64,000 bases of DNA from a virus: positions 124,001 to 188,000 of the IMG/VR virus record IMGVR_UViG_3300026518_000006. The stretch is one strand, 5' to 3'. The notes below the pieces were generated by a model. The model made no database searches and was not told the DNA's origin. It saw nothing but the letters and a program-made list of their open reading frames with translations. Position numbers and translations under genes: made by a program. This document shows positions 1 to 34,040 of the stretch, in pieces; position 1 is the stretch's first letter, and every line of letters begins with the position of its first letter.

Positions 1-395
1 TTTTTCTTAAATCCATCTAAAATAGCGTCTGAAATCAATTTTATAGTCGTTAATTCAGGATTAATATTAACTTCCATTGAAACACCTGTATCTGTCCATT
101 TCTGTATTCTTCGTGTAACATTTATCATACTATGAGCACCGTATTGGAATTTCCCTTTATAGTACCAATATCTTGTCTTAATATAGCGTGGCAAAATCGG
201 TACACTAATATCAGCTAAAGTTTGGTAATTTAGTTTGGAGTGTGGGGGTTGCCAAGAAGCAGTAGCCCCCATCAGAATACCGCTTGATGTGTTGTGACTT
301 GCACACCCATTATCTAAGAAGTAATGGTGGTCTACCTCGACTTCAAAATCATAGGTGGGAATGGGGTCTTTTTTTGTTATTTTCTTAATTTTCAT
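1..395 (-). CDS. nrdA: NrdA C-terminal fragment with C-intein (partial, runs off window)
   Basis: Second half of a fractured class I ribonucleotide reductase large subunit. The ATG at 395 overlaps the TGA of the endonuclease gene (ATGA). Residues 1-35 form a typical C-intein ending NGCASHN. The C-extein then begins at Thr36 with TSSGILMGATASWQPP, which matches the NrdA C-terminal domain and continues directly from the ATAPN end of the N-extein in the gene at 1343-4573. Trans-splicing would restore ATAPN-TSSG. The C-terminus and redox-active cysteines lie beyond the window edge. Seen: intein end and extein continuity. Inferred: active splicing. Confidence 0.88.
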   Translation of the reverse strand, partial: MKIKKITKKDPIPTYDFEVEVDHHYFLDNGCASHNTSSGILMGATASWQPPHSKLNYQTLADISVPILPRYIKTRYWYYKGKFQYGAHSMINVTRRIQKWTDTGVSMEVNINPELTTIKLISDAILDGFKK

Positions 396-1312
396 AATAA
401 TTCCTTTAATTTATTGATTATATTTTTTAAATCTGAATTTTTGTTTATTCTGATTAATTTGTAGCCTTTTTCTAAGGCAACTTTCTCTTTCGCTTCATCA
501 TTATCGATAATTGATTGTTTATCAATTAGAAAATGGTTTACTCCTATTTCATCCTCATTATAATGATACATATACCCGTCATATTCTATTATAATTTTTT
601 TGTCCAATATTACAAAATCATAATAATATTTTCGGTCTGCTTCAACATAAAACTCTTCCATATCTTTATACCCAAAAGCGACATTCAACCCCATCCCCAA
701 ACAAAACCCCCATATAGGCAATAGAAGCTCAAGAGACTCTTTTGATGCACTCCCTTTTAATTTATTTAAAGGTGTGTATTTCCCATTATAATGTCTCAAT
801 AAAATCTCTTCATCTGATATATCAATATCATATTTTTTTCTAAAATGACTAATTATCATCTTATTGGATTGTTCGAAGTTATTTTTATAATACTTCTCGG
901 TACCTTTTTCGACACCATATCTATCGATATAACCATCTAATGTATTAGCTAATGAAACTTTTTTAGCCTTTTCAAGATATTTTTTAGTTCCTATTTCTTC
1001 ACCATACCTTGAGACGAAAGATTTCAAATCACTTGAAATTTTTCCTTTTAGTTCATTAACTTTTTCAATAGCTTCATCTTCAGAAAGATTATATCTCTCC
1101 ATTTGCTGATTAATATCATATGGATTAAACTTTCTTTTAGATTGTTTAAGGTTAAATTGTTTTCTCCCCTCTACTTCACCTAATCTGTAAATATAACTTT
1201 CTAAACTATGTCCTGTTTTTAATTTTAGTTCATTAACTTTTTCAATAGCTTCATCTTCAGAAAGATTATATCTCTCCATTTGCTGATTAATATCATATGG
1301 ATTAAATCTCAT
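392..1312 (-). CDS. Free-standing EDxHD (Vsr-like) homing endonuclease
   Basis: A 306-aa protein sitting between the two halves of the nrdA split intein. The C-terminal domain (about residues 225-306) has the Vsr-like pattern IIEYDGYMYH, then a downstream Asp, KEKVALEKGYKLIRI, consistent with the EDxHD endonuclease family found in fractured genes. The N-terminal half consists of DNA-binding-type repeats with the core Y/F-I/V-x-R-Y/L-G-x-x-x-G. Two copies of a 28-residue unit starting FNPYDINQQMERYN are encoded by an exact 84-bp direct repeat. The gene probably spreads by cutting unsplit nrdA alleles. The catalytic assignment is by motif only. Confidence 0.8.
   Translation of the reverse strand: MRFNPYDINQQMERYNLSEDEAIEKVNELKLKTGHSLESYIYRLGEVEGRKQFNLKQSKRKFNPYDINQQMERYNLSEDEAIEKVNELKGKISSDLKSFVSRYGEEIGTKKYLEKAKKVSLANTLDGYIDRYGVEKGTEKYYKNNFEQSNKMIISHFRKKYDIDISDEEILLRHYNGKYTPLNKLKGSASKESLELLLPIWGFCLGMGLNVAFGYKDMEEFYVEADRKYYYDFVILDKKIIIEYDGYMYHYNEDEIGVNHFLIDKQSIIDNDEAKEKVALEKGYKLIRINKNSDLKNIINKLKELL
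1046..1306 (-). repeat. Exact 84-bp direct repeat inside the endonuclease gene
   Basis: Positions 1046-1129 and 1223-1306 are identical over 84 bp. They encode residues 62-89 and 3-30 of the nrdA-associated endonuclease. Perfect nucleotide identity, synonymous sites included, indicates a very recent internal duplication of a DNA-recognition module rather than an old protein repeat. Confidence 0.95.
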
Positions 1313-1342
1313 AGCTAAATCTCCCTATATATTTAATGAGAG

Positions 1343-4300
1343 CTATTGCTTCTCATTGATATTTATAATATCATCACCCTCTTTCAATTCATCACAACGA
1401 ATCCAAATCTCTTCGCCATTTCTATAGACAAGTAATTTGTGATTGTAGGTGAATTCATAAGTATTTCCATCTTCAAATTCAATTTCTATAACAGGTTGTT
1501 TTCCGTTATACCAAATGCGGTTTACTTCACTTTCTCCGTTTAATGTAGGTACTTTTATTGCGTCTATACCTATCCATTGCGGAACATTCAACTCTTCTAT
1601 TTTTCTGTAGTCTATATTTTGTTCTTCAAGAATATCATAAATAGATTTATTGCCGTCTGTTGTTTTCATTTTATTATGACCACTTTGACAGTTTGGTGCA
1701 GTAGCCAATAATAGGAAATTTCTAATCCCTTTTTCTTGAATTTTTTTAGACATTTCAGACCACTTGAAACCATTTAGGCTCTCTTTATCAAGTTGTTTGG
1801 TATTTTTTCCGAACATTTTAGAATAATCGGCTTTATCAAATAAAGGATAAGCACCTTTTTTCTCTGCAAGTTGAACACTTCTCTCATAACAATACCAAGC
1901 GATTTTTTCGTAAACCTTTTCAAGCTCGTCTAAGTCTTCAGGCTTCTCATAAGATAATTTATTATAAGCCATCCAATCACCTGTGCCCAACACTCCAATA
2001 CCAACATTTCTAAGAAGTTTTGATGAATTTTCAGCTTCTTTTACGGGCATTGTTCCTGTTTCAATACTTGCATCCATCATATCAACAGCGTTGTAGCAAA
2101 CTCTCTTCAATAGTTTATCTTCAGGGTCGTTTACAATTAATCCCAAATTGATACTCAAAAGATTACAACTGTGGTATAGCCCATCACTTTCTGTACTCAT
2201 AACTCCATTTTTGTAGCTTTGAACCCACTCGGTAGGTGCTTTAGTAACACTAAACGACTCCGTACAATTCATAGTCATAACACCATTAAACATTAATGTA
2301 TGGTTTTTTGGTTCATTACCACAATAAGTTGCTCCTCTCAACCCTGTTCTATCTATATTTTTAACGGTAACAAATCTAATTGCACTTCTATTATATTCTC
2401 TCATAGTAGGCATAACTCTATAAGCTTTATATCCTAAATCTAATAGTTTGATGCACTCAGAACCTGCAATTAATAATCTATATAGAGGTTTAACCGTGTA
2501 TTCTTTTTTATCAGAAGACCCGTTATTTAGAGGCAATTTTCTTTCGCCTCCATTATGTACTTTTTGTACTTTAGAATTAATACCCATTTCTTGTAAGAAT
2601 AACATTAAATTATTAATGAAAATTTCATTAACAGATGCAAATTGGATGCTTTCACTGCCTTTATCGTTTGTTAGAGTACCATCACTATCCATAATACCTG
2701 CTAACCATTTTAACCGACTTTCTAAAGTGTAATCAGAAGTAGGAATAAAAAATCTATCTTTTAATAATCTTGTGTAACTAATGGTAGTTCTATTTTGGGC
2801 TTCATCTTCATTAAATGAAGTATAACCACTAAAGTTATTCACTAAAGCTCTTTTCTCGTGATACAAATAAATTCTTTGTATTCCATTGTTATCTTGAGAC
2901 CCATCCCCTGAAAAAAACCCATTCTCATAAGCCAAAGGTAGCACCTTGTCCCCACTTAAAACAGGCAAATCGAATTTGGCAAGTCTGTCACCTACACTCA
3001 ATTCTTCAGTTCTCTTAATAATTGGAGCTTTTCTGCTGTCATCCTGTACGACTAACCAACGGTGCGCTAATGTGGCATTTATCGTTTGATTATTTGATAA
3101 AGAAACTGTGACTAATTCATCATCATCACTTGTTTTGAAAAGCTCACTCATAGACCATTCGGTACCGTTCCATACTTCAATAGTTTGACCCGATACAGAT
3201 TCAATGTCCACATAACCTTGTTTGGTAAGAATTTTGGTATCACCTGATACACAAAGGTTGGCACTATTAGCGATTAAATCTTCACCTTTCAGGTAGTTAC
3301 ATAGATTTAGATTGTCTTTATGTGTAATATAAAAGTCGCCTGTTTCAACCCAAATTCTCAGAAACTCTTTCCAAAGTGCTTTTGCATTTTCCTTTTTGCA
3401 GTTTGTTAGTGTGCCTTTTTCGCATAAATCATAGATGGTTTCTTGTGCTTTATACAGCTCTTCATCAATCAAAGAAACAATATCAATCCCTGTTTTTGTT
3501 TTCACTTCATAACTATCAAAGAGATATACATCTTTGTTTTTTAAAACAGCATCCACAAAATAATCATCCACTACTACTTGTGGGAACAAGTCAAAACACT
3601 TATTTCTCAAGTCACCTTGTGTTTCGGATTTCATTTCAATAAAGCTATGAATATCACCGTGCCACCAATCCAAAGCAGGAGTAATAGCACCTTTTCGGAT
3701 TCCTCTTTGGTTTACCGCTACTGCAATATCATTGATTATTTTAGCCCATCTGATGATATTGTTGGCATTTGGGATATTGTCTGAGTACGAACCTTCAGGT
3801 CTTAAACCACCTAAATAAACTCCAATTCCGCCACCCTCTTTGGAGATTTTAGCCATATCCTGCCAAGTTTTTGTAATACTCTCAATATTGTCTAAGGTAG
3901 GAACAATAAAACAGCTACCTACATTACCACCTTCTCTTCTGAGATTTGATTTAAATGGTGTTGCTAATGAGATATACATTCTCTGTAGCATAGTGAAATA
4001 TTCTTTTGTCTTTTTAACTCTTTCACTTTCATCTTCAATGCCACCTAAAATCATAGACGAAGCCATATCAGAAAATTGAGGGTATTCAATAACTCCTCTT
4101 GAATTTTTTAGAATATACTTTGAGCGAAGACTTAACACCTGAGCAATATTCATATCAAAGTCGTACTTCGGGTTAATAGCCTTTTTGATTGTCTTTATAT
4201 CCTCTTCTGAAAAAGGCTTCATAATATCTTTTCTGTAATGATTTGTTCTGACCGCATATTTAATATACTCATCAAATTGGTCATATTCAAATTTTGTATT

Positions 4301-4573
4301 TTTATATACTTGTCTATGGAGTTGGTACATTGATAATCTACCTGCGACAATAGACATCTCAGGATGGTCTTGGTCTATCATTGATGTAGCTGTAGAAACT
4401 AATAAATCTTGAATATCAGAGGTTTTCATATTGTTTTTAAAATTCAGCGTTAGCTTTGCTTCCAACTCAAGTTGATTTTCTTTTAATCCTGTGTATGCGA
4501 ATTCAAGTTGTTTTTTAATTTTACTATTATCAAACGGTTTTTTTGAACCATCTCTTTTAATTACTGTTTTCAT
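1343..4573 (-). CDS. nrdA: Ribonucleoside-diphosphate reductase large subunit NrdA, N-fragment, with one contiguous intein and an N-intein
   Basis: Reduces ribonucleotides to deoxyribonucleotides for phage DNA synthesis, together with an NrdB not seen here. Residues 1-90 are an ATP-cone (VIKRDGSKKPFD). The catalytic barrel follows, with GGNVGSCFIV and WWHGDIHSFIE. A contiguous intein occupies residues 441-769, between SANL and CTESF. The extein resumes at 770-961 and ends LLLATAPN, after which a split N-intein (962-1076) runs to the stop. The C-half is encoded at 1-395. The mature enzyme therefore needs one cis- and one trans-splicing event. A middle-type promoter lies upstream at 4604-4628. 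Confidence 0.93.
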   Translation of the reverse strand: MKTVIKRDGSKKPFDNSKIKKQLEFAYTGLKENQLELEAKLTLNFKNNMKTSDIQDLLVSTATSMIDQDHPEMSIVAGRLSMYQLHRQVYKNTKFEYDQFDEYIKYAVRTNHYRKDIMKPFSEEDIKTIKKAINPKYDFDMNIAQVLSLRSKYILKNSRGVIEYPQFSDMASSMILGGIEDESERVKKTKEYFTMLQRMYISLATPFKSNLRREGGNVGSCFIVPTLDNIESITKTWQDMAKISKEGGGIGVYLGGLRPEGSYSDNIPNANNIIRWAKIINDIAVAVNQRGIRKGAITPALDWWHGDIHSFIEMKSETQGDLRNKCFDLFPQVVVDDYFVDAVLKNKDVYLFDSYEVKTKTGIDIVSLIDEELYKAQETIYDLCEKGTLTNCKKENAKALWKEFLRIWVETGDFYITHKDNLNLCNYLKGEDLIANSANLCVSGDTKILTKQGYVDIESVSGQTIEVWNGTEWSMSELFKTSDDDELVTVSLSNNQTINATLAHRWLVVQDDSRKAPIIKRTEELSVGDRLAKFDLPVLSGDKVLPLAYENGFFSGDGSQDNNGIQRIYLYHEKRALVNNFSGYTSFNEDEAQNRTTISYTRLLKDRFFIPTSDYTLESRLKWLAGIMDSDGTLTNDKGSESIQFASVNEIFINNLMLFLQEMGINSKVQKVHNGGERKLPLNNGSSDKKEYTVKPLYRLLIAGSECIKLLDLGYKAYRVMPTMREYNRSAIRFVTVKNIDRTGLRGATYCGNEPKNHTLMFNGVMTMNCTESFSVTKAPTEWVQSYKNGVMSTESDGLYHSCNLLSINLGLIVNDPEDKLLKRVCYNAVDMMDASIETGTMPVKEAENSSKLLRNVGIGVLGTGDWMAYNKLSYEKPEDLDELEKVYEKIAWYCYERSVQLAEKKGAYPLFDKADYSKMFGKNTKQLDKESLNGFKWSEMSKKIQEKGIRNFLLLATAPNCQSGHNKMKTTDGNKSIYDILEEQNIDYRKIEELNVPQWIGIDAIKVPTLNGESEVNRIWYNGKQPVIEIEFEDGNTYEFTYNHKLLVYRNGEEIWIRCDELKEGDDIININEKQ
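2267..3253 (-). mobile_element. Contiguous LAGLIDADG-type intein in nrdA
   Basis: This 329-residue intein starts at Cys441 (CVSGDTKIL) and ends FNGVMTMN before Cys770. That resembles the ends of other RIR1 inteins, which use FNGxxTxxC rather than HN-C. The N3-type motif TLAHRWLV is present. Two LAGLIDADG-like helices, LAYENGFFSGDGS and LKWLAGIMDSDGT, indicate an embedded homing endonuclease. The asymmetry with the nearby split intein shows two independent invasions of the same gene. Confidence 0.9.
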
Positions 4574-17355: not shown

Positions 17356-18477
17356 TTAATCAAAAGCACCACTATTAATTTTTCGCATAGCATCAAAAGC
17401 TACATCAGGGTCATATGAACTCATATTTTGAAGCATACGGTCTTTCGTATAATCATCACTGCCATCATCAAACCCACCATCTGTGTCTAATAATGAATAA
17501 TAATCTGCTGTTTTTACACCATCTTCATCTTCTTCAGTATCTAAATCTATATTCTTTCTTAATACATCTAAAAATAAATCAAAATCATCAAACGCTTTTA
17601 TGTGCATAAATGGGGCAAAAATAATAGCTAAACTCATTATCATATCATCGTGATAGCCCTCTTCAGCTTCATATTTTTTCTTCACATTATCGCTTTTAAT
17701 GAAGTTAAAAAATTCGTTGATAGTATCTCTGTCTTGAACTATTAATTTCCCCTCTTCTATAAAAATCTTCAACATATTGATAATAAGAGGTCTTGATTTT
17801 ACAGTAGTTCTAAATCCGTAATATTTTTTATATTTTTTGTCTCCGTCATCTCTATCCCGATACATATTTGGATATTCGTAGTTGAGGTATAAAATATCGG
17901 CTACACTTTGTCCTGCACCTTCATTATTTTCGATAACTAAAAAAGCTTCATTATAATAAAGCCCTAATGTTTCAATATATTCAGGCATAACAAGATAATC
18001 TACATCTAATTTAGCTGAAGCAACCTGTATAAATGGAAATTTTGTAATATCAACCACTTGAATACTAAAACTATCTATCCCTTCTTTTGATGGGTCAATA
18101 CCAATGATGTAATTATGTCCTTTTATAGGTTTTTCATAAATATTAATCCCGCTGAATATGGTATCTTTAGCGACAGGTTCTTGTGGCACCATTAACTTCA
18201 ATCTTTCTGTACTAATCAGTGTTGAGGCAGAGCCAAGAAATTCACACGCCTCTGTTTGTGCGAAGAATTGTGCTCCATTTCTTGCTATTGTTTGTTTCTT
18301 GTACTCTTGAGGGGATAAAGGATTTCCTTTTTTATCAAAATGAGGAACTTCAGTCCAACTCGCTGTTACCAATCGGTGCCCGCTTTTGGACTTAAAAATA
18401 TTATATTTTACTGTATATGTCCCGTCAGGGTTTTTAATTATCTCTTTAATATCATTTATAGATTTTATTTTAAGCAT
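17356..18477 (-). CDS. gp17: Large terminase gp17, C-terminal fragment (nuclease domain)
   Basis: 373 aa. Begins in the late ATPase region: SWTEVPHFD, then EACEFLGSASTLIS corresponds to T4 FEGTSGTLIS. The RNase H-fold headful nuclease follows, with likely metal ligands in IIGIDPSKEG (Asp128), VIENNEGAG (Glu183) and GYHDDMIM (Asp277/278). It cuts concatemeric DNA during packaging. Its start overlaps the previous fragment's stop (TAATG), so the two are coupled. Residues 1-32 do not look like a functional C-intein (no terminal HN), leaving open whether this chain is ever joined or works as a separate subunit. Confidence 0.88.
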   Translation of the reverse strand: MLKIKSINDIKEIIKNPDGTYTVKYNIFKSKSGHRLVTASWTEVPHFDKKGNPLSPQEYKKQTIARNGAQFFAQTEACEFLGSASTLISTERLKLMVPQEPVAKDTIFSGINIYEKPIKGHNYIIGIDPSKEGIDSFSIQVVDITKFPFIQVASAKLDVDYLVMPEYIETLGLYYNEAFLVIENNEGAGQSVADILYLNYEYPNMYRDRDDGDKKYKKYYGFRTTVKSRPLIINMLKIFIEEGKLIVQDRDTINEFFNFIKSDNVKKKYEAEEGYHDDMIMSLAIIFAPFMHIKAFDDFDLFLDVLRKNIDLDTEEDEDGVKTADYYSLLDTDGGFDDGSDDYTKDRMLQNMSSYDPDVAFDAMRKINSGAFD

Positions 18478-19100
18478 TATTCAACATCCATTATAATAGG
18501 GTGACGCTCTATAGTATGAAATTCTTTATAAATTTCTTCCAACGAAAATTCACCTAAAGCATCAATTTCGATTGTATCATCTTCAGACAACACAACTTCT
18601 TCGTCTTTAAAATTGATATTTTTAGCACCCTCCACTAGTTGAAAAAAGTGGTTCATACCATTAGCTGTAGAAGTGTTTATAACCTGTTTAAATATCAATG
18701 AGTTCATAGTAGGTATTACAGCATCGATAAAGTCATCCCAATCTTTTGATTTTATATAACCCGCTTCGTCAGTGTAGATAATATTGCAATTATGAGACTC
18801 AATCATATTTGTTGTATATGTGTGCCCCCTTACACCCACAACATCATAAAACTCAAAAGCCCCCTCTTTGTGAGTAATATTTTTTATTACACCATTGGAT
18901 ATTTTATCACCAACTTTTAAATTTTTGGCTTGTCTAAAAATTTTTCCTGATTTTGATTTTCCTACTAATAATCTATGGTCTTCGGTACATTTTAAACTAC
19001 TATTGTCAGTTTCAATATAGTAAAGTATTTTTTTATTAATTCGTCTAACTGTTTCAAAATCTTCATACCCTCTCTCAGTTTTTATCATATAATCGTTCAT
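18477..19100 (-). CDS. gp17: Large terminase gp17, third fragment with C-intein (Walker B and coupling motif)
   Basis: 207 aa. Residues 1-104 are a long C-intein with a block-B-like CTEDHRLLV and ending MIESHN. The extein starts at Cys105 with CNIIYTDEAGYIK (Walker B and catalytic Glu) and includes the ATPase coupling motif INTSTANGMNHFF. The final 45 residues (SEDDTIEIDALGEFSLEEIY) have no place in T4 gp17 and resemble the N-terminus of the second intein here, but lack the catalytic Cys1. Overlaps the endonuclease gene by 26 bp and the next fragment by TAATG. Confidence 0.87.
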   Translation of the reverse strand: MNDYMIKTERGYEDFETVRRINKKILYYIETDNSSLKCTEDHRLLVGKSKSGKIFRQAKNLKVGDKISNGVIKNITHKEGAFEFYDVVGVRGHTYTTNMIESHNCNIIYTDEAGYIKSKDWDDFIDAVIPTMNSLIFKQVINTSTANGMNHFFQLVEGAKNINFKDEEVVLSEDDTIEIDALGEFSLEEIYKEFHTIERHPIIMDVE

Positions 19101-20050
19101 AAAAAGCTCCTATTAGATTTTCTTTTGTTATAGATGATTTCCAATTTTTAGATGAATTTAATTCTGATGGCAACATCTCTAAATTAATGATATTTCCTAT
19201 TATATAAGGAGGGATACCTTCCTTAAACCCCATAATTTTTGAAAATTTATGGTCTATATTATAAAAACCTTTTCCTCTCCCTCTTTTGTTATAGTTCGTC
19301 AAGGTATATAAATCTTGAGCTTTAGTTACTTTATCCACTTCTCTACAGTATAATTCATAATCTGAGAGTTCACTTTCTTTTACCCAAAGTCCGTTAATTT
19401 CCTTTAATTTTCTATAATTTTTTACTCTACATTTTATTTTCCCACAAGTAGGTCTATACCCTTGTCCATATGATAAATATTTTCTTGGTTTACAACAATA
19501 TTCACATTTTGGCTCTTCTTTCATATCATTCATAAATAAATATATATTTTTAGATATATTATTTGTTATTTTAGGTATAGAACCATAGATATCCATTATT
19601 AACTGATTTTTATTATGGTAGTTATCGGGTTTTATTTTGGATATGTAATTTTTAAGGTCATTTACGGATTTATCGAGTTTATTTTCAAGTTTCGGTGCAT
19701 TTAAATCATCCATTTGGCATTTGTGTGAGCAATATTTAGCATAACCATCTGATATATTTTTAAATTTTGTTTTTGCACCACATTTACATATTGGGGGTAT
19801 TAAAATGTTATGTTTTATAATATATAGCAACTCATTCAATTTATTTGTAGTTGGTGGAATTTTTGCATTTTCTAATAATTTTTGATAGTGAATTTTATAG
19901 AACTCAGATTTTGATGTTAATTTTCCAAAGCTTTCAAACTCTAACAACTCAATAATTGACAGTTCTTTCATATAACTCTTTTATAGTAATTTTTTCTTCT
20001 TTTAATGTTTTTTTATTTATAACTTCTACCGTAGTATCAGGAGATACACA
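18789..20050 (-). mobile_element. Atypical split intein 2 in gp17 with enclosed HNH endonuclease gene
   Basis: N-intein of 33 aa (19949-20050), starting CVSPDTTVEV after extein RGYT. C-intein of 104 aa (18789-19100), ending ESHN before Cys. The very short N-part and long C-part match the atypical split of the AceL-TerL intein, also from a terminase, and the N-parts look alike (CVxxDTxVE, then IKxLY). The 298-aa endonuclease gene lies between. Insertion is just ahead of Walker B. Confidence 0.85.
19075..19971 (-). CDS. Free-standing HNH-type homing endonuclease
   Basis: 298 aa between the halves of gp17 intein 2. Two zinc-knuckle pairs (CKCGAKTKF...CSHKCQ and CEYCCKPR...CGKIKC) precede a C-terminal HNH-like core: FYNIDHKFSKIMGF, NIINLEMLPSELNSSKNWKS. 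These resemble phage HNH endonucleases with Asp-His and Asn-Leu...Asn-x2-K motifs. It overlaps both neighbours (22 and 26 bp), so it is tightly integrated in the gp17 operon. Confidence 0.75.
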   Translation of the reverse strand: MKELSIIELLEFESFGKLTSKSEFYKIHYQKLLENAKIPPTTNKLNELLYIIKHNILIPPICKCGAKTKFKNISDGYAKYCSHKCQMDDLNAPKLENKLDKSVNDLKNYISKIKPDNYHNKNQLIMDIYGSIPKITNNISKNIYLFMNDMKEEPKCEYCCKPRKYLSYGQGYRPTCGKIKCRVKNYRKLKEINGLWVKESELSDYELYCREVDKVTKAQDLYTLTNYNKRGRGKGFYNIDHKFSKIMGFKEGIPPYIIGNIINLEMLPSELNSSKNWKSSITKENLIGAFYERLYDKN

Positions 20051-20659
20051 AGTATATCCACGAAAGCTGTCACTTGATGGGCTGTCTGTCATAATCCTTG
20101 TGCCGTTTTCAAACTCGATATTTGATTTGTTCCACACCGATATCCCATTCATAAGCCATATTGGAAGCTCTAAGAAAACCTTTTTAATTTTATCCAATAC
20201 TTCACGGGCTGTGGACGGTTTATTGGCTACAATCCCAATATTTATAGCAGTATCGTGAAACATAGCTCTCCACAACAGATAGTTGCCCACTGTAACCGTA
20301 TTATGGCTAAGAATATCATTAGTGTAATAAAGATTATCCCCACTAACACTTAAATCATACATTTCTTCTGAGTACCCTAAATCTATTACTTTCGTTACTT
20401 TTGAATCGCCTTTTTTTGTATTTAAGATTTTTCCTAAACTATTTTTTGCAAATACTTCTTGAAAGTCATTAGTAATTAAAATATGGTCATCAGCACACTT
20501 TATTTTTAGTCCATTTTGCAGGTGCACTTCATATAATCTGTATTTAACAGTTTTATTAGTTTTAGTTATATCTCTCCAACCATCGTGGCTTTCGACTTGC
20601 CAATCATTGACATCAAATTGTTCTGTAAATTTTCGGTTTATTTTATCTGATAGTTTCAT
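19949..20659 (-). CDS. gp17: Large terminase gp17, second fragment between two inteins
   Basis: 236 aa in three parts. Residues 1-120 are the C-intein of intein 1 (block-B ADDHILI, ending NDILSHN). Residues 121-203 are the gp17 extein following Walker A (TVTVGNYLLWRAMFHD to SFRGYT). Residues 204-236 are the N-intein of intein 2 (CVSPDTTVEV). Its first base overlaps the end of the GIY-YIG endonuclease gene. The extein aligns with the T4 gp17 ATPase between Walker A and Walker B. This piece must be spliced at both ends. Confidence 0.9.
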   Translation of the reverse strand: MKLSDKINRKFTEQFDVNDWQVESHDGWRDITKTNKTVKYRLYEVHLQNGLKIKCADDHILITNDFQEVFAKNSLGKILNTKKGDSKVTKVIDLGYSEEMYDLSVSGDNLYYTNDILSHNTVTVGNYLLWRAMFHDTAINIGIVANKPSTAREVLDKIKKVFLELPIWLMNGISVWNKSNIEFENGTRIMTDSPSSDSFRGYTCVSPDTTVEVINKKTLKEEKITIKELYERTVNY

Positions 20660-22009
20660 TATTTTAGCCCATATTTATTTTTAAAATTTGTAGTGAAATT
20701 TTCCAAATCTTTTTTATTTATTTTTAATATGTTTTGTAATATATCTTCATCAAAACATTCAGTAGAAGAAAAATGATTATACTTCTTCGTTACTCTATTA
20801 TTCTTCGATAAAATATATTGCTCTTTATAGAAAGCTTTATCGTAAGGCATTTTCTCTGTATAGATAACATTATATGATAATCCGTTTTTGACTTCAAATA
20901 TTGACTGACTCCCCCACCTTGATATAATTCCTTGAGATGTTATGCCTATTTTATAAAAAACATCTCTTGAATTATAAAACTTAATATAATAAAGAATAGT
21001 TTCTGTATTTTTTGCCCAATAGTTTTTCTTTCTTATCAAATCTATACTCCATCCTATGTGCTCACCTTTCCCTTTATCTCTATTAATTCTCTCTAATTCT
21101 TCTTTTGGTTTTGATTGTAGAGTTTTTTGCCACTTTTGTTGTCTTTGATTAAATATAATTAATCCTTCTTCACCATATCTCTCAATACATTTCTCTAAAG
21201 AAAAAGTGCTTTGTCGTTCTGATAATAATCTTTTAGCTTCATTTTCATTATAACCTCGTTTTAAATAATACTCTAAAGTACAATCATTATTACCATTTTC
21301 CTTATTCGATTTCGATATTTTAGAATGAACTTCATTTATTTTTTGCTGTTTTTCTTCCTCTGTTAAACCTTGATATTTTATAAAGTTTTTAGAGCCACTT
21401 GAATACTTTCCACCGTGATTTTTGGCAGGATTATTATCTGAAGTGAACCCCTTTACTTGTTTGTCAATATTATGTAGTCCATATCGTACAATAGTTCCTA
21501 ATAGTCCATTTGATTTCTTTACATTTAATATATATCGTTGTCTTTCAAGGAACTTTGTTTTCATCCCATCAGATATAAACTTAGCAAAATTATCTATCTT
21601 CATATATTCGCCTTTATTTAAATAATATAGGCACTTTTTTAACTCTCTGAATTGAGATAATGTAGGAAATTTATTTAAGTTACTATAAAAGGATTTTTGA
21701 TTGAATAACCACCTTAAATCTTTTTCTTTATATGGTTTACCTTTGTTATCCAATTTAATTTTCAATTTAATTTTCAATTTATCTATTTCATTTTTATGAA
21801 CTAAATTAGTTGTTTTATTATAAGGAATGTATTCAACTTCTGAAAAGTCTATATATGGTATTTTTGAAACTCTTATATAGTTTGGCGAATAATGAAGTCT
21901 TCTGTTTACTTTGCTCATTTATCATTTCGTGGAATTCACCAATCGGCATTTTCACTAATTCTCCTGTGTGTTTGTTTTTTATATTTATAATAGTTGAAAA
22001 GTCGTTGCA
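20300..22009 (-). mobile_element. Split intein 1 in gp17 Walker A with enclosed GIY-YIG endonuclease gene
   Basis: The N-intein is 58 aa (21833-22009) starting CNDFSTIINI right after extein PRQSGK. The C-intein is 120 aa (20300-20659) ending LSHN before Thr, which completes the Walker A GKT. The short N-part and long C-part again indicate an atypical split point. The 419-aa endonuclease ORF lies between and overlaps the N-fragment by 86 bp. Confidence 0.87.
20659..21918 (-). CDS. Free-standing homing endonuclease, GIY-YIG superfamily (T5orf172-like)
   Basis: 419 aa between the halves of gp17 intein 1. Residues about 305-390 have the degenerate GIY-YIG signature of the T5orf172/MUG113 group: ILYYIKFYN...VFYKIGITSQGIISRWGSQ. 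Upstream helical repeats (YYLKRGYNENEAKRLLSERQ, LEKCIERYGEEG) are DNA-binding modules like those of the nrdA endonuclease. It starts inside the N-fragment reading frame. Catalytic assignment by motif. Confidence 0.75.
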   Translation of the reverse strand: MSKVNRRLHYSPNYIRVSKIPYIDFSEVEYIPYNKTTNLVHKNEIDKLKIKLKIKLDNKGKPYKEKDLRWLFNQKSFYSNLNKFPTLSQFRELKKCLYYLNKGEYMKIDNFAKFISDGMKTKFLERQRYILNVKKSNGLLGTIVRYGLHNIDKQVKGFTSDNNPAKNHGGKYSSGSKNFIKYQGLTEEEKQQKINEVHSKISKSNKENGNNDCTLEYYLKRGYNENEAKRLLSERQSTFSLEKCIERYGEEGLIIFNQRQQKWQKTLQSKPKEELERINRDKGKGEHIGWSIDLIRKKNYWAKNTETILYYIKFYNSRDVFYKIGITSQGIISRWGSQSIFEVKNGLSYNVIYTEKMPYDKAFYKEQYILSKNNRVTKKYNHFSSTECFDEDILQNILKINKKDLENFTTNFKNKYGLK

Positions 22010-22480
22010 TTTACCGCTCTGTCTCGGATAAAGTACAACTAAATCCTCTAAACTCAGGAGCTCATCTTCTAAAAATACTTGGTATCTTCTTGGTTCAGGT
22101 CTTGCCAATCCTGTTTTTGTAGTGATGAAACAATAATTACTTCTGAAATATTTAAATGATTTCTTACACTTTTCTATTTCTATTTTGTGCAGAGTATTTA
22201 AATCTAATTCAGTTTTTTCACGCTTTAAAACACGAATACCATTGTATGATATTTTATTGCCGTATTTATCGGTATAATAACCATTTTCATTTCTTGGAGG
22301 TGTTAATAATAACAACAAGCCATCGTGTTCTTCAGGAGTCCAATCATAGGTATTCTGCACAAATTTTAAAAATGTTTTTTCCTCTAATAATTGGTCTAAT
22401 AAATCATAGATGTATTCATCTTCAGTGAGGTCTTTTACTTTAGTCAGTAGTTTTCTGTATTTTTTATCTAAATTAGTCAT
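21833..22480 (-). CDS. gp17: Large terminase gp17, N-terminal fragment with N-intein
   Basis: 215 aa. Residues 1-157 are the N-terminal part of the packaging ATPase ending in LYPRQSGK, the first part of Walker A (T4: SRQLGKT). At Cys158 an N-intein of 58 aa begins and runs to the stop. The ATPase is thus cut exactly through its ATP-binding loop and inactive until trans-splicing restores SGK-T. A late promoter (22485-22492) directs it, as expected for gp17. Confidence 0.9.
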   Translation of the reverse strand: MTNLDKKYRKLLTKVKDLTEDEYIYDLLDQLLEEKTFLKFVQNTYDWTPEEHDGLLLLLTPPRNENGYYTDKYGNKISYNGIRVLKREKTELDLNTLHKIEIEKCKKSFKYFRSNYCFITTKTGLARPEPRRYQVFLEDELLSLEDLVVLYPRQSGKCNDFSTIINIKNKHTGELVKMPIGEFHEMINEQSKQKTSLFAKLYKSFKNTIYRLFRS

Positions 22481-30865: not shown

Positions 30866-30887
30866 AAACTATACCAAAGTATAGTTT
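30866..30887 (-). terminator. Hairpin terminator after uvsW
   Basis: Arms AAACTATAC and GTATAGTTT (9 bp) with a 4-nt loop, starting at the uvsW stop and continuing into TTTTAAG. AT-rich but with a T-rich tail. Confidence 0.55.
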
Positions 30888-31800
30888 AAATATTGGGTAG
30901 AGTGACTTCTTTAGTTAAAATGGGGTGTCCTTCTGATACATAGTACATTTCTCTTTCATAAAAGTGTTTTAAACTATAGGTGTCTTTAACATAAGTGAAC
31001 ACATCTACTAAATCAAAAACATATACATTATCACCTTTTTCTTTATGTAACCTCATAATTCTACCCATAGCTTGAAGTACTAGAGTATATGATTTTGTTG
31101 AGCTCAAAAACACAAGGTTCTTTAGTCTTGGGATGTTGATACCTGTACTCAAAACATTATATTGTCCTATTACAATAGCATTCTCACAAGTATTAAGGTA
31201 AAGTCTAATCTGCTCTCTAACACTTGATTTTGTGTTTCCACTCATAAAGAAAACATTGTGTTTTTTCATAAACTCAAAGTCAGATTTTCTTTTATTGGTA
31301 AGCTTCTCACCTGTTAAACTTTCAAAAGTATCTTCCCCGTGTGCAGTGACAGCGTATAAGGCTACTGTAACCCCTTTAAGTTTTTCTAAAAACTGTTTTA
31401 CAAACAACTGTCTTGATTTGCTTTCTCTTATGAATTTTGTTTCTTCCTGATACTTCATACCACTTTTGGTTTGGTTTCGTGGATGTGTTAAGAAAATAGC
31501 CATAATAGTTGTGTCTGTTAATAAGCCCATCTCAATTAGTTGTCTTGCATTAACAATTCTTTCGGGTTTTCCCAATGCTTGCTCTAATAACATAGCATCT
31601 TCTTCTATGATAGGCATAGAGCCAGTCATACCCAATTTTATCTCACAAGGTTGCTTTAATATAGACTGAAGTACTTCAGCTTTAGCTTGGTGACAATTAG
31701 ACACTAAAATGTTATTGGCATAATAATTGTGGTTGTTTTCTATATGTAAATTATAAGTATCACCTTGAAACTCAACCTTTTTTATGGACTTTATCTTCAT
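30886..31800 (-). CDS. uvsW: UvsW helicase C-terminal fragment with C-intein
   Basis: 304 aa. Residues 1-35 are a canonical C-intein (NNHNYYANNILVSN). The extein starts Cys36-HQAKAEVLQS, completing the DECH box begun by the N-fragment. KLGMTGSM, then VIGQYNVLSTGINIPRLKNL and LQAMGRIMRLHKEKG are helicase motifs III-VI as in T4 UvsW. UvsW unwinds branched DNA and R-loops, shifting the phage from origin-dependent to recombination-dependent replication. Start overlaps the nuclease gene by 29 bp. Confidence 0.9.
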   Translation of the reverse strand: MKIKSIKKVEFQGDTYNLHIENNHNYYANNILVSNCHQAKAEVLQSILKQPCEIKLGMTGSMPIIEEDAMLLEQALGKPERIVNARQLIEMGLLTDTTIMAIFLTHPRNQTKSGMKYQEETKFIRESKSRQLFVKQFLEKLKGVTVALYAVTAHGEDTFESLTGEKLTNKRKSDFEFMKKHNVFFMSGNTKSSVREQIRLYLNTCENAIVIGQYNVLSTGINIPRLKNLVFLSSTKSYTLVLQAMGRIMRLHKEKGDNVYVFDLVDVFTYVKDTYSLKHFYEREMYYVSEGHPILTKEVTLPNI

Positions 31801-33142
31801 TCTTACCCTTTAGTTTTTCCAATTTTTGTATCGCATTTGTTACTTTATCGGTATTTTCATCATCCAATTTAATATTAGCGAATAACTCTTTTATATTGCT
31901 TAAATTTTTAATCAGATAATCCTCTGTTATAATTTTATATGAGTAATTATTTTCTTCACACCAAACCAAAGCACTATCTTCTTTTGCTATATTTCGAGCA
32001 TTGAGTATTAGTGATTTTGGTTTTATTTCGAATATTATATTATGTTTGTTATCTGTAAAATCCACAATATATGTGTGTATACTATCTTCAAATAAATATG
32101 GTATTCTAGTGGTTTCATATAGTGTATTTGGGTTCAACAAATAAAACATAAATTCCCAAGAGCTCCTAAAATTAAAATTGCCAAATTTTATTCTGCTTCT
32201 CGACCAAGAGTTGGTAATACACGGGGTAAATTCTCCGCTTGCAATTTTTGATTTCATTATTATAGAGTTATGTTTGGCTATCTTCTTTTTTGTCTCTTTT
32301 GACATTTTATGAGCAGGGTTGTTTTTTCTCATCCGCTCAGAACATAATAATTGTCTACATTTTTCATTACAGGTTTTTCTATTCAATGATGAAGATTGTG
32401 CCCTTTTAATTTTATTACCACAATAATCGCAATATAGTGGGTCTATTTCATCAATATATTCTATTCTTGACAATCTAAGCAAGTTCGGAAATTTTAAATC
32501 TGCTCCAACAAAAAGTAAATATTTCATATAATTATCATTATCATCTATAAATGAATATTTAGGGGTAGTTGTTGATTTATACTTTGGTAAATTATTTTTT
32601 AATGTTTCGTATGTAACATTTTCTACAATCCTACCACTATAATCCCAATTTCCAAGAACTAGCTTTAAGTCATAAATGTCATCTTTAAAAGCATTGAATA
32701 TAAAGGCATATTTTATCGTTTTGTTGCCTTTATATTCATAAAAGAGCGTCCTTAAATCTTCACGATATATTAAAATTTGTTTTATTATTTTTGATTTTAA
32801 TGGTTTTGACAGCTTGTTTGGATTAAGTGTTTTTAAATATTTTTTATAATCATCCATATCTTATTTATAGGGCAGAAGCTCATCAGTTAACACCAACTCG
32901 TCTACTCTAACATAACCTCGTTGTGTAAATACCTTATGATTACCTGTGATATATAGCTTTCCGTTATCTGTTTCTATCTCATACATCTGTTCGTTTGATA
33001 TATTTTTATGTGTTTTTAGTACTTGATTGTATTCATTTTGTTTGGTAGTTTCATTGTATGTCATAACTAAATCTCCTTCAGTTATACTGCCGATTGGCAC
33101 ATCTCCATTAATAGTTTTAATCAAAGTATCACCTCTTAGACA
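31696..33142 (-). mobile_element. Split intein in the uvsW DECH box with enclosed PD-(D/E)XK nuclease gene
   Basis: N-intein of 93 aa (32861-33142), starting CLRGDTLIKT after extein ILVDE and including the TGNHKVF block-B motif. C-intein of 35 aa (31696-31800), ending LVSN before Cys. The canonical 93/35 split differs from the atypical gp17 inteins. A 361-aa nuclease ORF separates the halves. Confidence 0.88.
31772..32857 (-). CDS. Free-standing homing endonuclease, TnsA-like PD-(D/E)XK type
   Basis: 361 aa between the uvsW intein halves. The nuclease core at about 230-310 reads FRSSWEFMFYLL, a Y...PYLFE segment, HTYIVDFTDNKHNIIFEIKP and a C-terminal IITEDYL, the E...D...ExK layout of TnsA-like phage homing enzymes. 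A zinc knuckle (CDYCGNK...CNEKCRQ) and a NUMOD-like basic linker (KMSKETKKKIAKHNS) precede it. Spaced 3 bp from the N-fragment. Confidence 0.78.
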   Translation of the reverse strand: MDDYKKYLKTLNPNKLSKPLKSKIIKQILIYREDLRTLFYEYKGNKTIKYAFIFNAFKDDIYDLKLVLGNWDYSGRIVENVTYETLKNNLPKYKSTTTPKYSFIDDNDNYMKYLLFVGADLKFPNLLRLSRIEYIDEIDPLYCDYCGNKIKRAQSSSLNRKTCNEKCRQLLCSERMRKNNPAHKMSKETKKKIAKHNSIIMKSKIASGEFTPCITNSWSRSRIKFGNFNFRSSWEFMFYLLNPNTLYETTRIPYLFEDSIHTYIVDFTDNKHNIIFEIKPKSLILNARNIAKEDSALVWCEENNYSYKIITEDYLIKNLSNIKELFANIKLDDENTDKVTNAIQKLEKLKGKNEDKVHKKG

Positions 33143-33817
33143 CTCATCAACCAAGATAGCGTCATATAGTCTTACATCTTTCATAACTTTGTTCAAGCTT
33201 TGCCAAGTGGTGATTATATAGGGTTTATCCAACGCTTTATCATCATTCTCACCACCAATTAGTTTAATACTGTCAAGCATCTCTTTTGGGGCATTGTAAT
33301 CTTTAAAATCTTGGAACATTTGAGATGTTAATCCGATTGTGGGGACTACTAATATAGTCGGGATATCGTGGTCGAAAAAGTATTTTAAAACCAAATAAGC
33401 AACCATTGACTTGCCACCACCTGTGGCAATAATATCCAATTTATTTCTACTTCTAATAAGGCTTAGAAAGCCTTTTAGTTGGTGTTTATAGGGGGTAAAG
33501 GGTAGGGTAGGGATAACGCTTTTCAAGAAGTCTATAGCATCATCACGCTCTAATGGCGGTAATAATTCAACTTTATCGAATTCAATATTTTCTATAAGAC
33601 GCTCTTTAAAACCTTTTTCAACTTTGAAATATTTACCATCTTTATAATTCTGAGCTTGATAAAATCGAGTATATCCATCATCTTTGCCCATTTGAACTCT
33701 AGGTTCGTGCTCTGAATTTAGTCTTTTGGCTCTAAGTAGCTTATCAATCTTGAATACAGTGTCTCTATTATTAGTGAATAGGTTAAGATGATGTTTCGCC
33801 TCATTTAATATTGTCAT
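32861..33817 (-). CDS. uvsW: UvsW helicase N-terminal fragment with N-intein
   Basis: About 318 aa. I start at the ATG at 33817, preceded by GGAAA; the ATG 39 bp further upstream lies inside the preceding gene. The extein carries the UvsW N-domain, TPYKHQLKGFLSLI (Q-like motif), Walker A DIIATGGGKS and motif Ia/Ib, then stops at YDAILVDE, halfway through the DECH box. The N-intein follows to the stop. The fragment lacks the catalytic Cys-His of the box, so it cannot hydrolyse ATP before splicing. Confidence 0.9.
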   Translation of the reverse strand: MTILNEAKHHLNLFTNNRDTVFKIDKLLRAKRLNSEHEPRVQMGKDDGYTRFYQAQNYKDGKYFKVEKGFKERLIENIEFDKVELLPPLERDDAIDFLKSVIPTLPFTPYKHQLKGFLSLIRSRNKLDIIATGGGKSMVAYLVLKYFFDHDIPTILVVPTIGLTSQMFQDFKDYNAPKEMLDSIKLIGGENDDKALDKPYIITTWQSLNKVMKDVRLYDAILVDECLRGDTLIKTINGDVPIGSITEGDLVMTYNETTKQNEYNQVLKTHKNISNEQMYEIETDNGKLYITGNHKVFTQRGYVRVDELVLTDELLPYK

Positions 33818-33827
33818 ATAGTTTCCA

Positions 33828-34040
33828 TTATATTGTGTATTCGGGATTATCCTCAAGCCATTTAATATAAGGCTTTTTTAGTACGATTTCGGTAGACCCT
33901 CTTTTTCGTATATTTCCTTTGATTTTTACTTTATTGTCGATAACATCAGTAACTACACCTTCATTAAACCAGTAGCCGTCTTTGCCTGTGTATAAAACAG
34001 TATCGCCAATCTTTACATTAATCCCGAAATAGTCTTTCAT
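33828..34040 (-). CDS. Small SH3/KOW-like protein, 70 aa, C-terminus NPEYTI
   Basis: VKIGDTVLYTGKDGYWFNEG, VVTDVIDNKVKIKG looks like a small beta-barrel of SH3 or KOW type, followed by a helix ending WLEDNPEYTI. First of a run of tiny genes (34-38 kb) that share the C-terminal motif. Overlaps its upstream neighbour by ATGA. Confidence 0.58.
   Translation of the reverse strand: MKDYFGINVKIGDTVLYTGKDGYWFNEGVVTDVIDNKVKIKGNIRKRGSTEIVLKKPYIKWLEDNPEYTI

What the first reader, a model, noticed from the sequence alone, without database searches (positions are those of the whole stretch)
30886..33817. UvsW helicase split inside its DECH box
The N-extein ends ILVDE and the C-extein starts CHQAKA, so the intein divides the Walker B/DECH motif itself. 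A TnsA-like nuclease gene lies between. Neither piece can be an ATPase alone; UvsW activity is therefore strictly dependent on splicing, which could act as a timing delay for the switch from origin- to recombination-dependent replication.
Basis: partly seen in the sequence, partly recalled or inferred. Interest (0 to 1): 0.75.

Follow-up and report, generated by a model that had tools for sequence, protein, structure and literature searches.

The report
Helicase gene broken by mobile element
In this large virus of bacteria, a selfish DNA element has cut the gene for a DNA-repair helicase in two at its ATP-burning site, and the protein halves must stitch themselves together; the same kind of element breaks at least four other unrelated virus ATPases at exactly the same three-amino-acid motif.

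Summary
On the minus strand, uvsW is split into an N-half ending LVDE plus a 93-aa intein N-fragment (33856/33817-32861), a TnsA-like nuclease ORF (32857-31772) and a 35-aa intein C-fragment plus the C-half starting CHQAKA (31800-30886). The joined exteins match T4 UvsW (PDB 2oca, E 1e-35), and no second copy was found in the 235-kb record. The arrangement is not unique: plaque-isolated phages (Salmonella S16, STP4-a; Proteus PM2) carry it, while S16's near-identical relatives STML-198, CGG4-1 and Melville have an uninterrupted gene. The element is identical (0-1 differences in 1227 nt) where flanking uvsW differs at 60-70 positions, and S16's flanks show a co-conversion tract. This is a homing "fractured gene", not a dedicated timer. 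New here: the same nuclease family sits in split inteins at Walker-B DE|C in five ATPase families (UvsW, TerL, PhoH, gp44 clamp loader, CobS/MoxR) in 51 of 52 assessable independent loci. Two different split positions occur, and the nuclease's tree disagrees with the host genes. Fourteen of 51 elements, this one included, carry a T4-type late promoter just before the nuclease.

The parts
33143..33856 (-). UvsW N-extein (238 aa from TTG 33856; 225 aa from ATG 33817): motif I GGGKS, Ia, and D-E of motif II; ends LVDE
32864..33142 (-). intein N-fragment, 93 aa (Cys1, block B ITGNH), stop 32863-32861
32857..32869 (-). TATAAATAAGATA, T4-type late promoter motif over the intein-N stop codon, ending on the A of the nuclease ATG
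   Evidence: 13-mer 3 copies in the window against 0.01 expected
31772..32857 (-). 361-aa TnsA-like PD-(D/E)XK presumed homing endonuclease: N-terminal region with Cys-x2-Cys pair, nuclease core 220-330 (E235, D266, E277, K279)
31696..31800 (-). intein C-fragment, 35 aa (block F YNLHIENNHNYYANN, ends VSN); start codon overlaps the nuclease 3' end, AAAGGG upstream
30886..31695 (-). UvsW C-extein, 269 aa plus stop: C-H of motif II and the rest of the helicase incl. Helicase_C domain

Best explanation
A selfish composite element (split intein + TnsA-like homing endonuclease gene + embedded late promoter) has inserted into uvsW exactly between the Walker-B codons GAT GAG (DE) and TGT (C). The nuclease is thought to cut intein-free alleles at the DNA encoding ...hhDE|C, and recombination repair copies the whole element in (inferred; insertion without duplication or loss, co-conversion and recent spread are shown in Salmonella phages). 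The damage is neutralised at protein level: the two halves are translated separately, the intein fragments associate and trans-splice using Cys1, the C-terminal Asn and the host's own Cys as +1 nucleophile, giving intact ...LVDECHQAKA... UvsW (inferred from conserved residues and from viable isolates lacking an intact uvsW). Elements of this nuclease family use the same DE|C target in several unrelated phage ATPases, and the nuclease moves between inteins independently of them.
For: Anatomy. Nuclease core modelled at pLDDT about 97, nearest TnsA (Z 9.7, rmsd 3.0 over 120 residues) with conserved E235/D266/E277/K279. Same arrangement in S16, STP4-a, PM2, Lak and IMG/VR contigs. Empty sites in STML-198, CGG4-1, Melville, with clean junctions. 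Co-conversion: S16 vs STML-198 37 mismatches in the 600 nt around the site, 3 in the next 850. Element with 0-1 of 1227 nt changed while exteins differ at 60-70 positions (p about 1e-16). DE|C at 51 of 52 assessable independent loci over five ATPase families. The phage's own gp44 reads VLDEAD, without Cys, and has no element. Nuclease tree rejects monophyly by host gene (AU 1.6e-4 for UvsW, 9e-4 for TerL) whereas the intein tree nearly follows it.
Against: No splicing or cleavage assay exists for this element. The penultimate intein residue is Ser, not the usual His (His in S16/PM2). The nuclease N-terminal region is poorly modelled, and its DNA target was not determined; DE|C preference is inferred from insertion sites. 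Exchange by co-conversion was shown in relatives, not in this phage. The nuclease tree has long branches.
Confidence: 0.87

Rival explanations
1. Splicing is an evolved timer: slow assembly of UvsW delays R-loop unwinding and so the switch to recombination-dependent replication.
For: UvsW does shut off T4 origins at late times (PMC3016281); the cut makes activity dependent on assembly.
Against: Presence/absence among very close relatives; same elements in TerL, PhoH, gp44, CobS/MoxR; recent homing; related split inteins splice fast; T4 times UvsW by promoter.
Confidence: 0.06
2. Transcriptional AND-gate: the N-half comes from the replication operon, while the element's embedded late promoter drives nuclease + C-half, so complete UvsW accumulates late. 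Complementary to the best explanation.
For: TATAAATA within 50 nt upstream of the nuclease ATG in 14 of 51 independent loci against 0.27 expected, in 10 the only copy on that strand; 13-mer shared with two window sites 33-34 nt before late-type genes; no TATAAATA upstream of the N-half on that strand as far as 63548.
Against: By a PWM of the phage's late promoters the site ranks only 35th; in several loci it lies 12-13 nt before the ATG, leaving no leader; T4 intron endonucleases carry such promoters for themselves (PMC2988022); read-through from the operon would also make the C-half.
Confidence: 0.2
3. The halves work as a non-covalent two-chain enzyme without splicing, as reported for split NrdA of phage Aeh1.
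For: Precedent of a functional genes-in-pieces enzyme (PMC2988022).
Against: Intein catalytic residues are kept at both ends and the element is inside motif II, so unspliced chains would hold a 128-residue Hint fold in the active site.
Confidence: 0.05
4. Dead gene or assembly artefact.
For: None found.
Against: All three frames open and the arrangement recurs in isolates and in dozens of contigs; C-extein change in relatives is almost all synonymous (11:1 and 8:0).
Confidence: 0.02

Closest known systems
'Fractured genes' of metagenomic phages (Dassa et al. 2009, NAR 37:2560; paper not held, recalled, cited in PMC3653736 and PMC6892783)
   Same: conserved enzyme gene broken by a split intein with a free-standing endonuclease gene between the halves; recalled abstract also mentions control elements brought in with the endonuclease
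   Different: their newly described nuclease family is Vsr-like; here it is TnsA-like and locked to Walker-B DE|C in five ATPase families
Split uvsW of Salmonella phages S16/STP4-a/SEA1/CF-SP2 and Proteus phage PM2
   Same: same gene, same insertion point, same intein and nuclease families
   Different: annotated only as 'DNA helicase / hypothetical protein / DNA helicase'; nuclease about 31-34% identical overall; TATAAATA lies inside the nuclease, not before it
Split PolB intein with HNH endonuclease of Pseudomonas phage MIJ3 (PMC6892783)
   Same: two ORFs of one enzyme with intein blocks and an endonuclease ORF between
   Different: DNA polymerase B, Ser1 intein, HNH nuclease
Atypically split TerL inteins (GOS-TerL cited in PMC7090010; AceL-TerL recalled)
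   Same: TerL members of the nuclease family sit in inteins with short N (31-43 aa) and long C (106-115 aa) fragments at YIDE|CAF
   Different: UvsW intein is split at the canonical position (93 + 35 aa)
TnsA of Tn7
   Same: nuclease core fold and PD-(D/E)XK residues
   Different: no transposase genes; presumed homing role; about 12% identity
I-Bth0305I / Vsr-type homing endonuclease
   Same: PD-(D/E)XK-like core, Z 7.1
   Different: weaker match than TnsA

Membership tests
UvsW helicase | full-length similarity to T4 UvsW with SF2 motifs including DECH | tested here: met
   2oca 1.4e-35 over query 119-485; DECH aligned. The N-terminal 118 aa were not aligned
Fractured gene (split intein + endonuclease) | enzyme gene broken by two intein fragments with an endonuclease ORF between | tested here: met
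Fractured gene (split intein + endonuclease) | trans-splicing restores the enzyme | not testable with these tools
   needs expression or mass spectrometry
Class 1 split intein | Cys1, block B T-x-x-H, C-terminal Asn, +1 Cys/Ser/Thr | tested here: met
   Cys1, ITGNH...VSN|C; similarity to NrdJ-1, gp41-1, Spl DnaX
Class 1 split intein | penultimate His in block G (usual but variable, so not treated as strictly defining) | tested here: not met
   Ser here; other loci vary (Ser, His, Ala, Lys). That the position is variable among active inteins is own knowledge
TnsA-like PD-(D/E)XK nuclease | core fold and catalytic E/D/ExK | tested here: met
   Pfam PF08722 1.2e-5 (slightly under cut-off); TnsA Z 9.7; E235, D266, E277, K279 conserved
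Homing endonuclease | occupied and empty alleles, precise insertion, co-conversion | tested here: met
   met in Salmonella phage relatives, not in this phage itself
Homing endonuclease | cleaves the element-free allele | not testable with these tools
   needs purified protein
Vsr-like homing endonuclease (I-Bth0305I) | Vsr fold and motif | tested here: inconclusive
   Z 7.1 against 9.7 for TnsA

The most novel reading that the evidence does not exclude
One TnsA-like homing endonuclease lineage reads the DNA that encodes the Walker-B motif hhDE|C, which unrelated ATPases (SF2 helicase, terminase, PhoH, clamp loader, CobS/MoxR AAA+) share, and so jumps between non-homologous genes and between differently split inteins, bringing its own late promoter.
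Probability: 0.5. Interest if true: 0.75.

Novelty: new variant of a known kind. Interest (0 to 1): 0.6.

Why it matters
It shows how one selfish element family can occupy many essential genes by aiming at a catalytic motif shared by unrelated ATPases, where only perfect protein splicing is tolerated. It predicts dozens of new natural split intein pairs, of two split types. It also offers a clean system (S16 against STML-198) in which homing, co-conversion and any timing cost of a split UvsW can be tested in cultivable phages. Many 'DNA helicase / hypothetical / DNA helicase' annotations should be corrected.

Tried and rejected
Single-sequence scan of IMG/VR with the nuclease found nothing; the 12-row profile found 177 relatives and returned 80 loci. 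Second uvsW in the genome: none. Dassa 2009 not held; no held paper joins 'split intein' with UvsW and the two that join TnsA, homing endonuclease and intein are not about this. PWM of late promoters ranked the window site only 35th, so the promoter claim rests on recurrence over loci. Sigma-70 scan was near the shuffle level and uninformative. Nuclease against PDB by sequence: chance matches only. 'Window + PhoH' as intein sisters: neither found nor rejected (AU 0.16), so co-transfer of intein and nuclease there is open. The co-conversion boundaries were chosen after seeing the mismatches.

Full report
1. Observation. The window is bases 124001-188000 of a 235,593-base virus record. On its minus strand uvsW is in two ORFs with a nuclease ORF between. 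The N-half ends YDAILVDE followed by a 93-residue intein N-fragment and a stop. The nuclease ORF begins 3 nt after that stop. The C-half begins inside the nuclease 3' end with a 35-residue intein C-fragment ending VSN, followed by CHQAKA. Pfam and PHROGs support each piece. Joined exteins match T4 UvsW and joined intein halves match NrdJ-1, gp41-1 and Spl DnaX inteins. No other UvsW-like helicase was found in the record.

2. The same thing elsewhere. Proteus phage PM2 and Salmonella phages S16, STP4-a, SEA1 and CF-SP2 carry the same split uvsW, annotated without mention of inteins; so do Prevotella Lak phages and IMG/VR contigs. These are plaque isolates in several cases, so phages live with the split gene.

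3. It is mobile. S16 relatives STML-198, CGG4-1 and Melville have uninterrupted uvsW. The 1227-nt element of S16 lies between GAC GAG and TGC CAC, the empty site reads GAT GAA TGY CAC, with nothing duplicated or lost. Against STML-198, 37 of 600 nt around the site differ but only 3 of the next 850 (boundaries chosen by eye): a co-conversion tract. Between S16 and CF-SP2 or SEA1 the element has 1 or 0 differences while flanking uvsW has 70 or 60. That is the mark of recent homing.

4. The nuclease. AlphaFold2 models residues 220-350 at pLDDT above 90. The closest solved fold is TnsA of Tn7 (Z 9.7; I-Bth0305I and Vsr at 7.1). E235, D266, E277 and K279 are conserved across the family. The poorly modelled N-terminal region with its Cys pair is presumably the DNA reader (inference).

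5. The site. A profile scan with the nuclease alone returned 80 loci. Host genes fall into five ATPase families, checked with Pfam and PHROGs: UvsW, TerL, PhoH, gp44-like clamp loader and a CobS/MoxR-like AAA+. In 51 of 52 assessable loci (nuclease below 95% identity) the N-extein ends in DE and the next host residue, where visible, is Cys: LVDE|CH, YIDE|CAF, IVDE|CQN, ILDE|CD, LLDE|CD. The exception (L072) is a TerL inserted at IDEMAFIE|C with Thr at +1. So the cut inside the DECH box is no accident of UvsW. This phage's own clamp loader reads VLDEAD and is free. TerL inteins in the same window, with other nucleases, sit at other places.

6. Two split types, moving nuclease. TerL inteins are split 31-43 + 106-115 aa, all others 93-109 (a few longer) + 35-46 aa. 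The intein tree almost follows host genes (TerL one clade, 100/99), but the nuclease tree needs nine host changes and rejects UvsW (AU 1.6e-4) and TerL (9e-4) as single clades. The window's nuclease is sister to that in PhoH of Campylobacter phage CPt10 (96/81). The simplest reading is that the nuclease is exchanged between inteins that share the target. Long branches call for care.

7. Late promoter. TATAAATA, over-represented in the window and placed before capsid genes, lies within 50 nt upstream of the nuclease ATG in 14 of 51 loci against 0.27 expected (8 of 214 other large ORFs). In this window it is TATAAATAAGATA, a 13-mer found three times against 0.01 expected, overlapping the intein-N stop. 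T4 intron endonucleases have such promoters (PMC2988022), and T4 UvsW is itself late (PMC3016281). Counter-evidence: PWM rank 35 and very short spacing to the ATG.

8. Mechanism. Shown: anatomy, precise insertion and recent spread in relatives, site specificity by insertion, promoter enrichment. Inferred: cleavage at DE|C DNA, trans-splicing, function of the promoter.

9. Novelty. Fractured genes with split inteins are known since 2009 (recalled; cited), and inteins in Walker motifs are common (PMC5050341). UvsW as host, the TnsA-like nuclease family, its fixation on DE|C across five ATPase families and the recurrent late promoter were not found described in the held library; absence there is not proof.

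Noticed in passing
window 17356-22480 (-): TerL looks broken at least twice by split inteins with other nuclease ORFs: one cut in the P-loop (RQSGK|C ... N|TVTVGNYL) and one just before Walker B (RGYT|C ... N|CNIIYTDEAG), so terminase would need at least two trans-splicing events.
   Followed up: partly
window 3-4573 (-): NrdA carries a LAGLIDADG cis-intein and is also fractured (TAPN|CQSG ... N|TSSG) with a nuclease ORF (392-1312) between; with UvsW and TerL several split-intein pairs must avoid cross-splicing in one cell.
   Followed up: partly
window 18477-19100 / 17356-18477 (-): A further break in TerL between VEGAKN and HRLVTASW without recognisable Cys1 intein ends; possible decayed or unusual third split.
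   Followed up: no
G000:C1:6294-6527 (-), outside window: A second, stronger TnsA-like domain (PF08722, 2e-24); PHROG 'head closure' families also match the homing nuclease, hinting that it may derive from a phage head-completion nuclease.
   Followed up: no
L020, L024 (TerL of Escherichia phage TB34 and Shewanella phage Thanatos-2): Here the nuclease is fused to the intein N-fragment in one ORF, an intermediate between free-standing and embedded nuclease.
   Followed up: partly
L021/L022 (Campylobacter phages CP21, CPt10): phoH annotated as disrupted or as several putative genes is a split-intein element at IVDE|CQN.
   Followed up: partly
L038 4860-6068: Downstream of the TerL element a second Hint-containing ORF (SHN|CDADF) lies nearby: probably another intein in the same terminase.
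   Followed up: no
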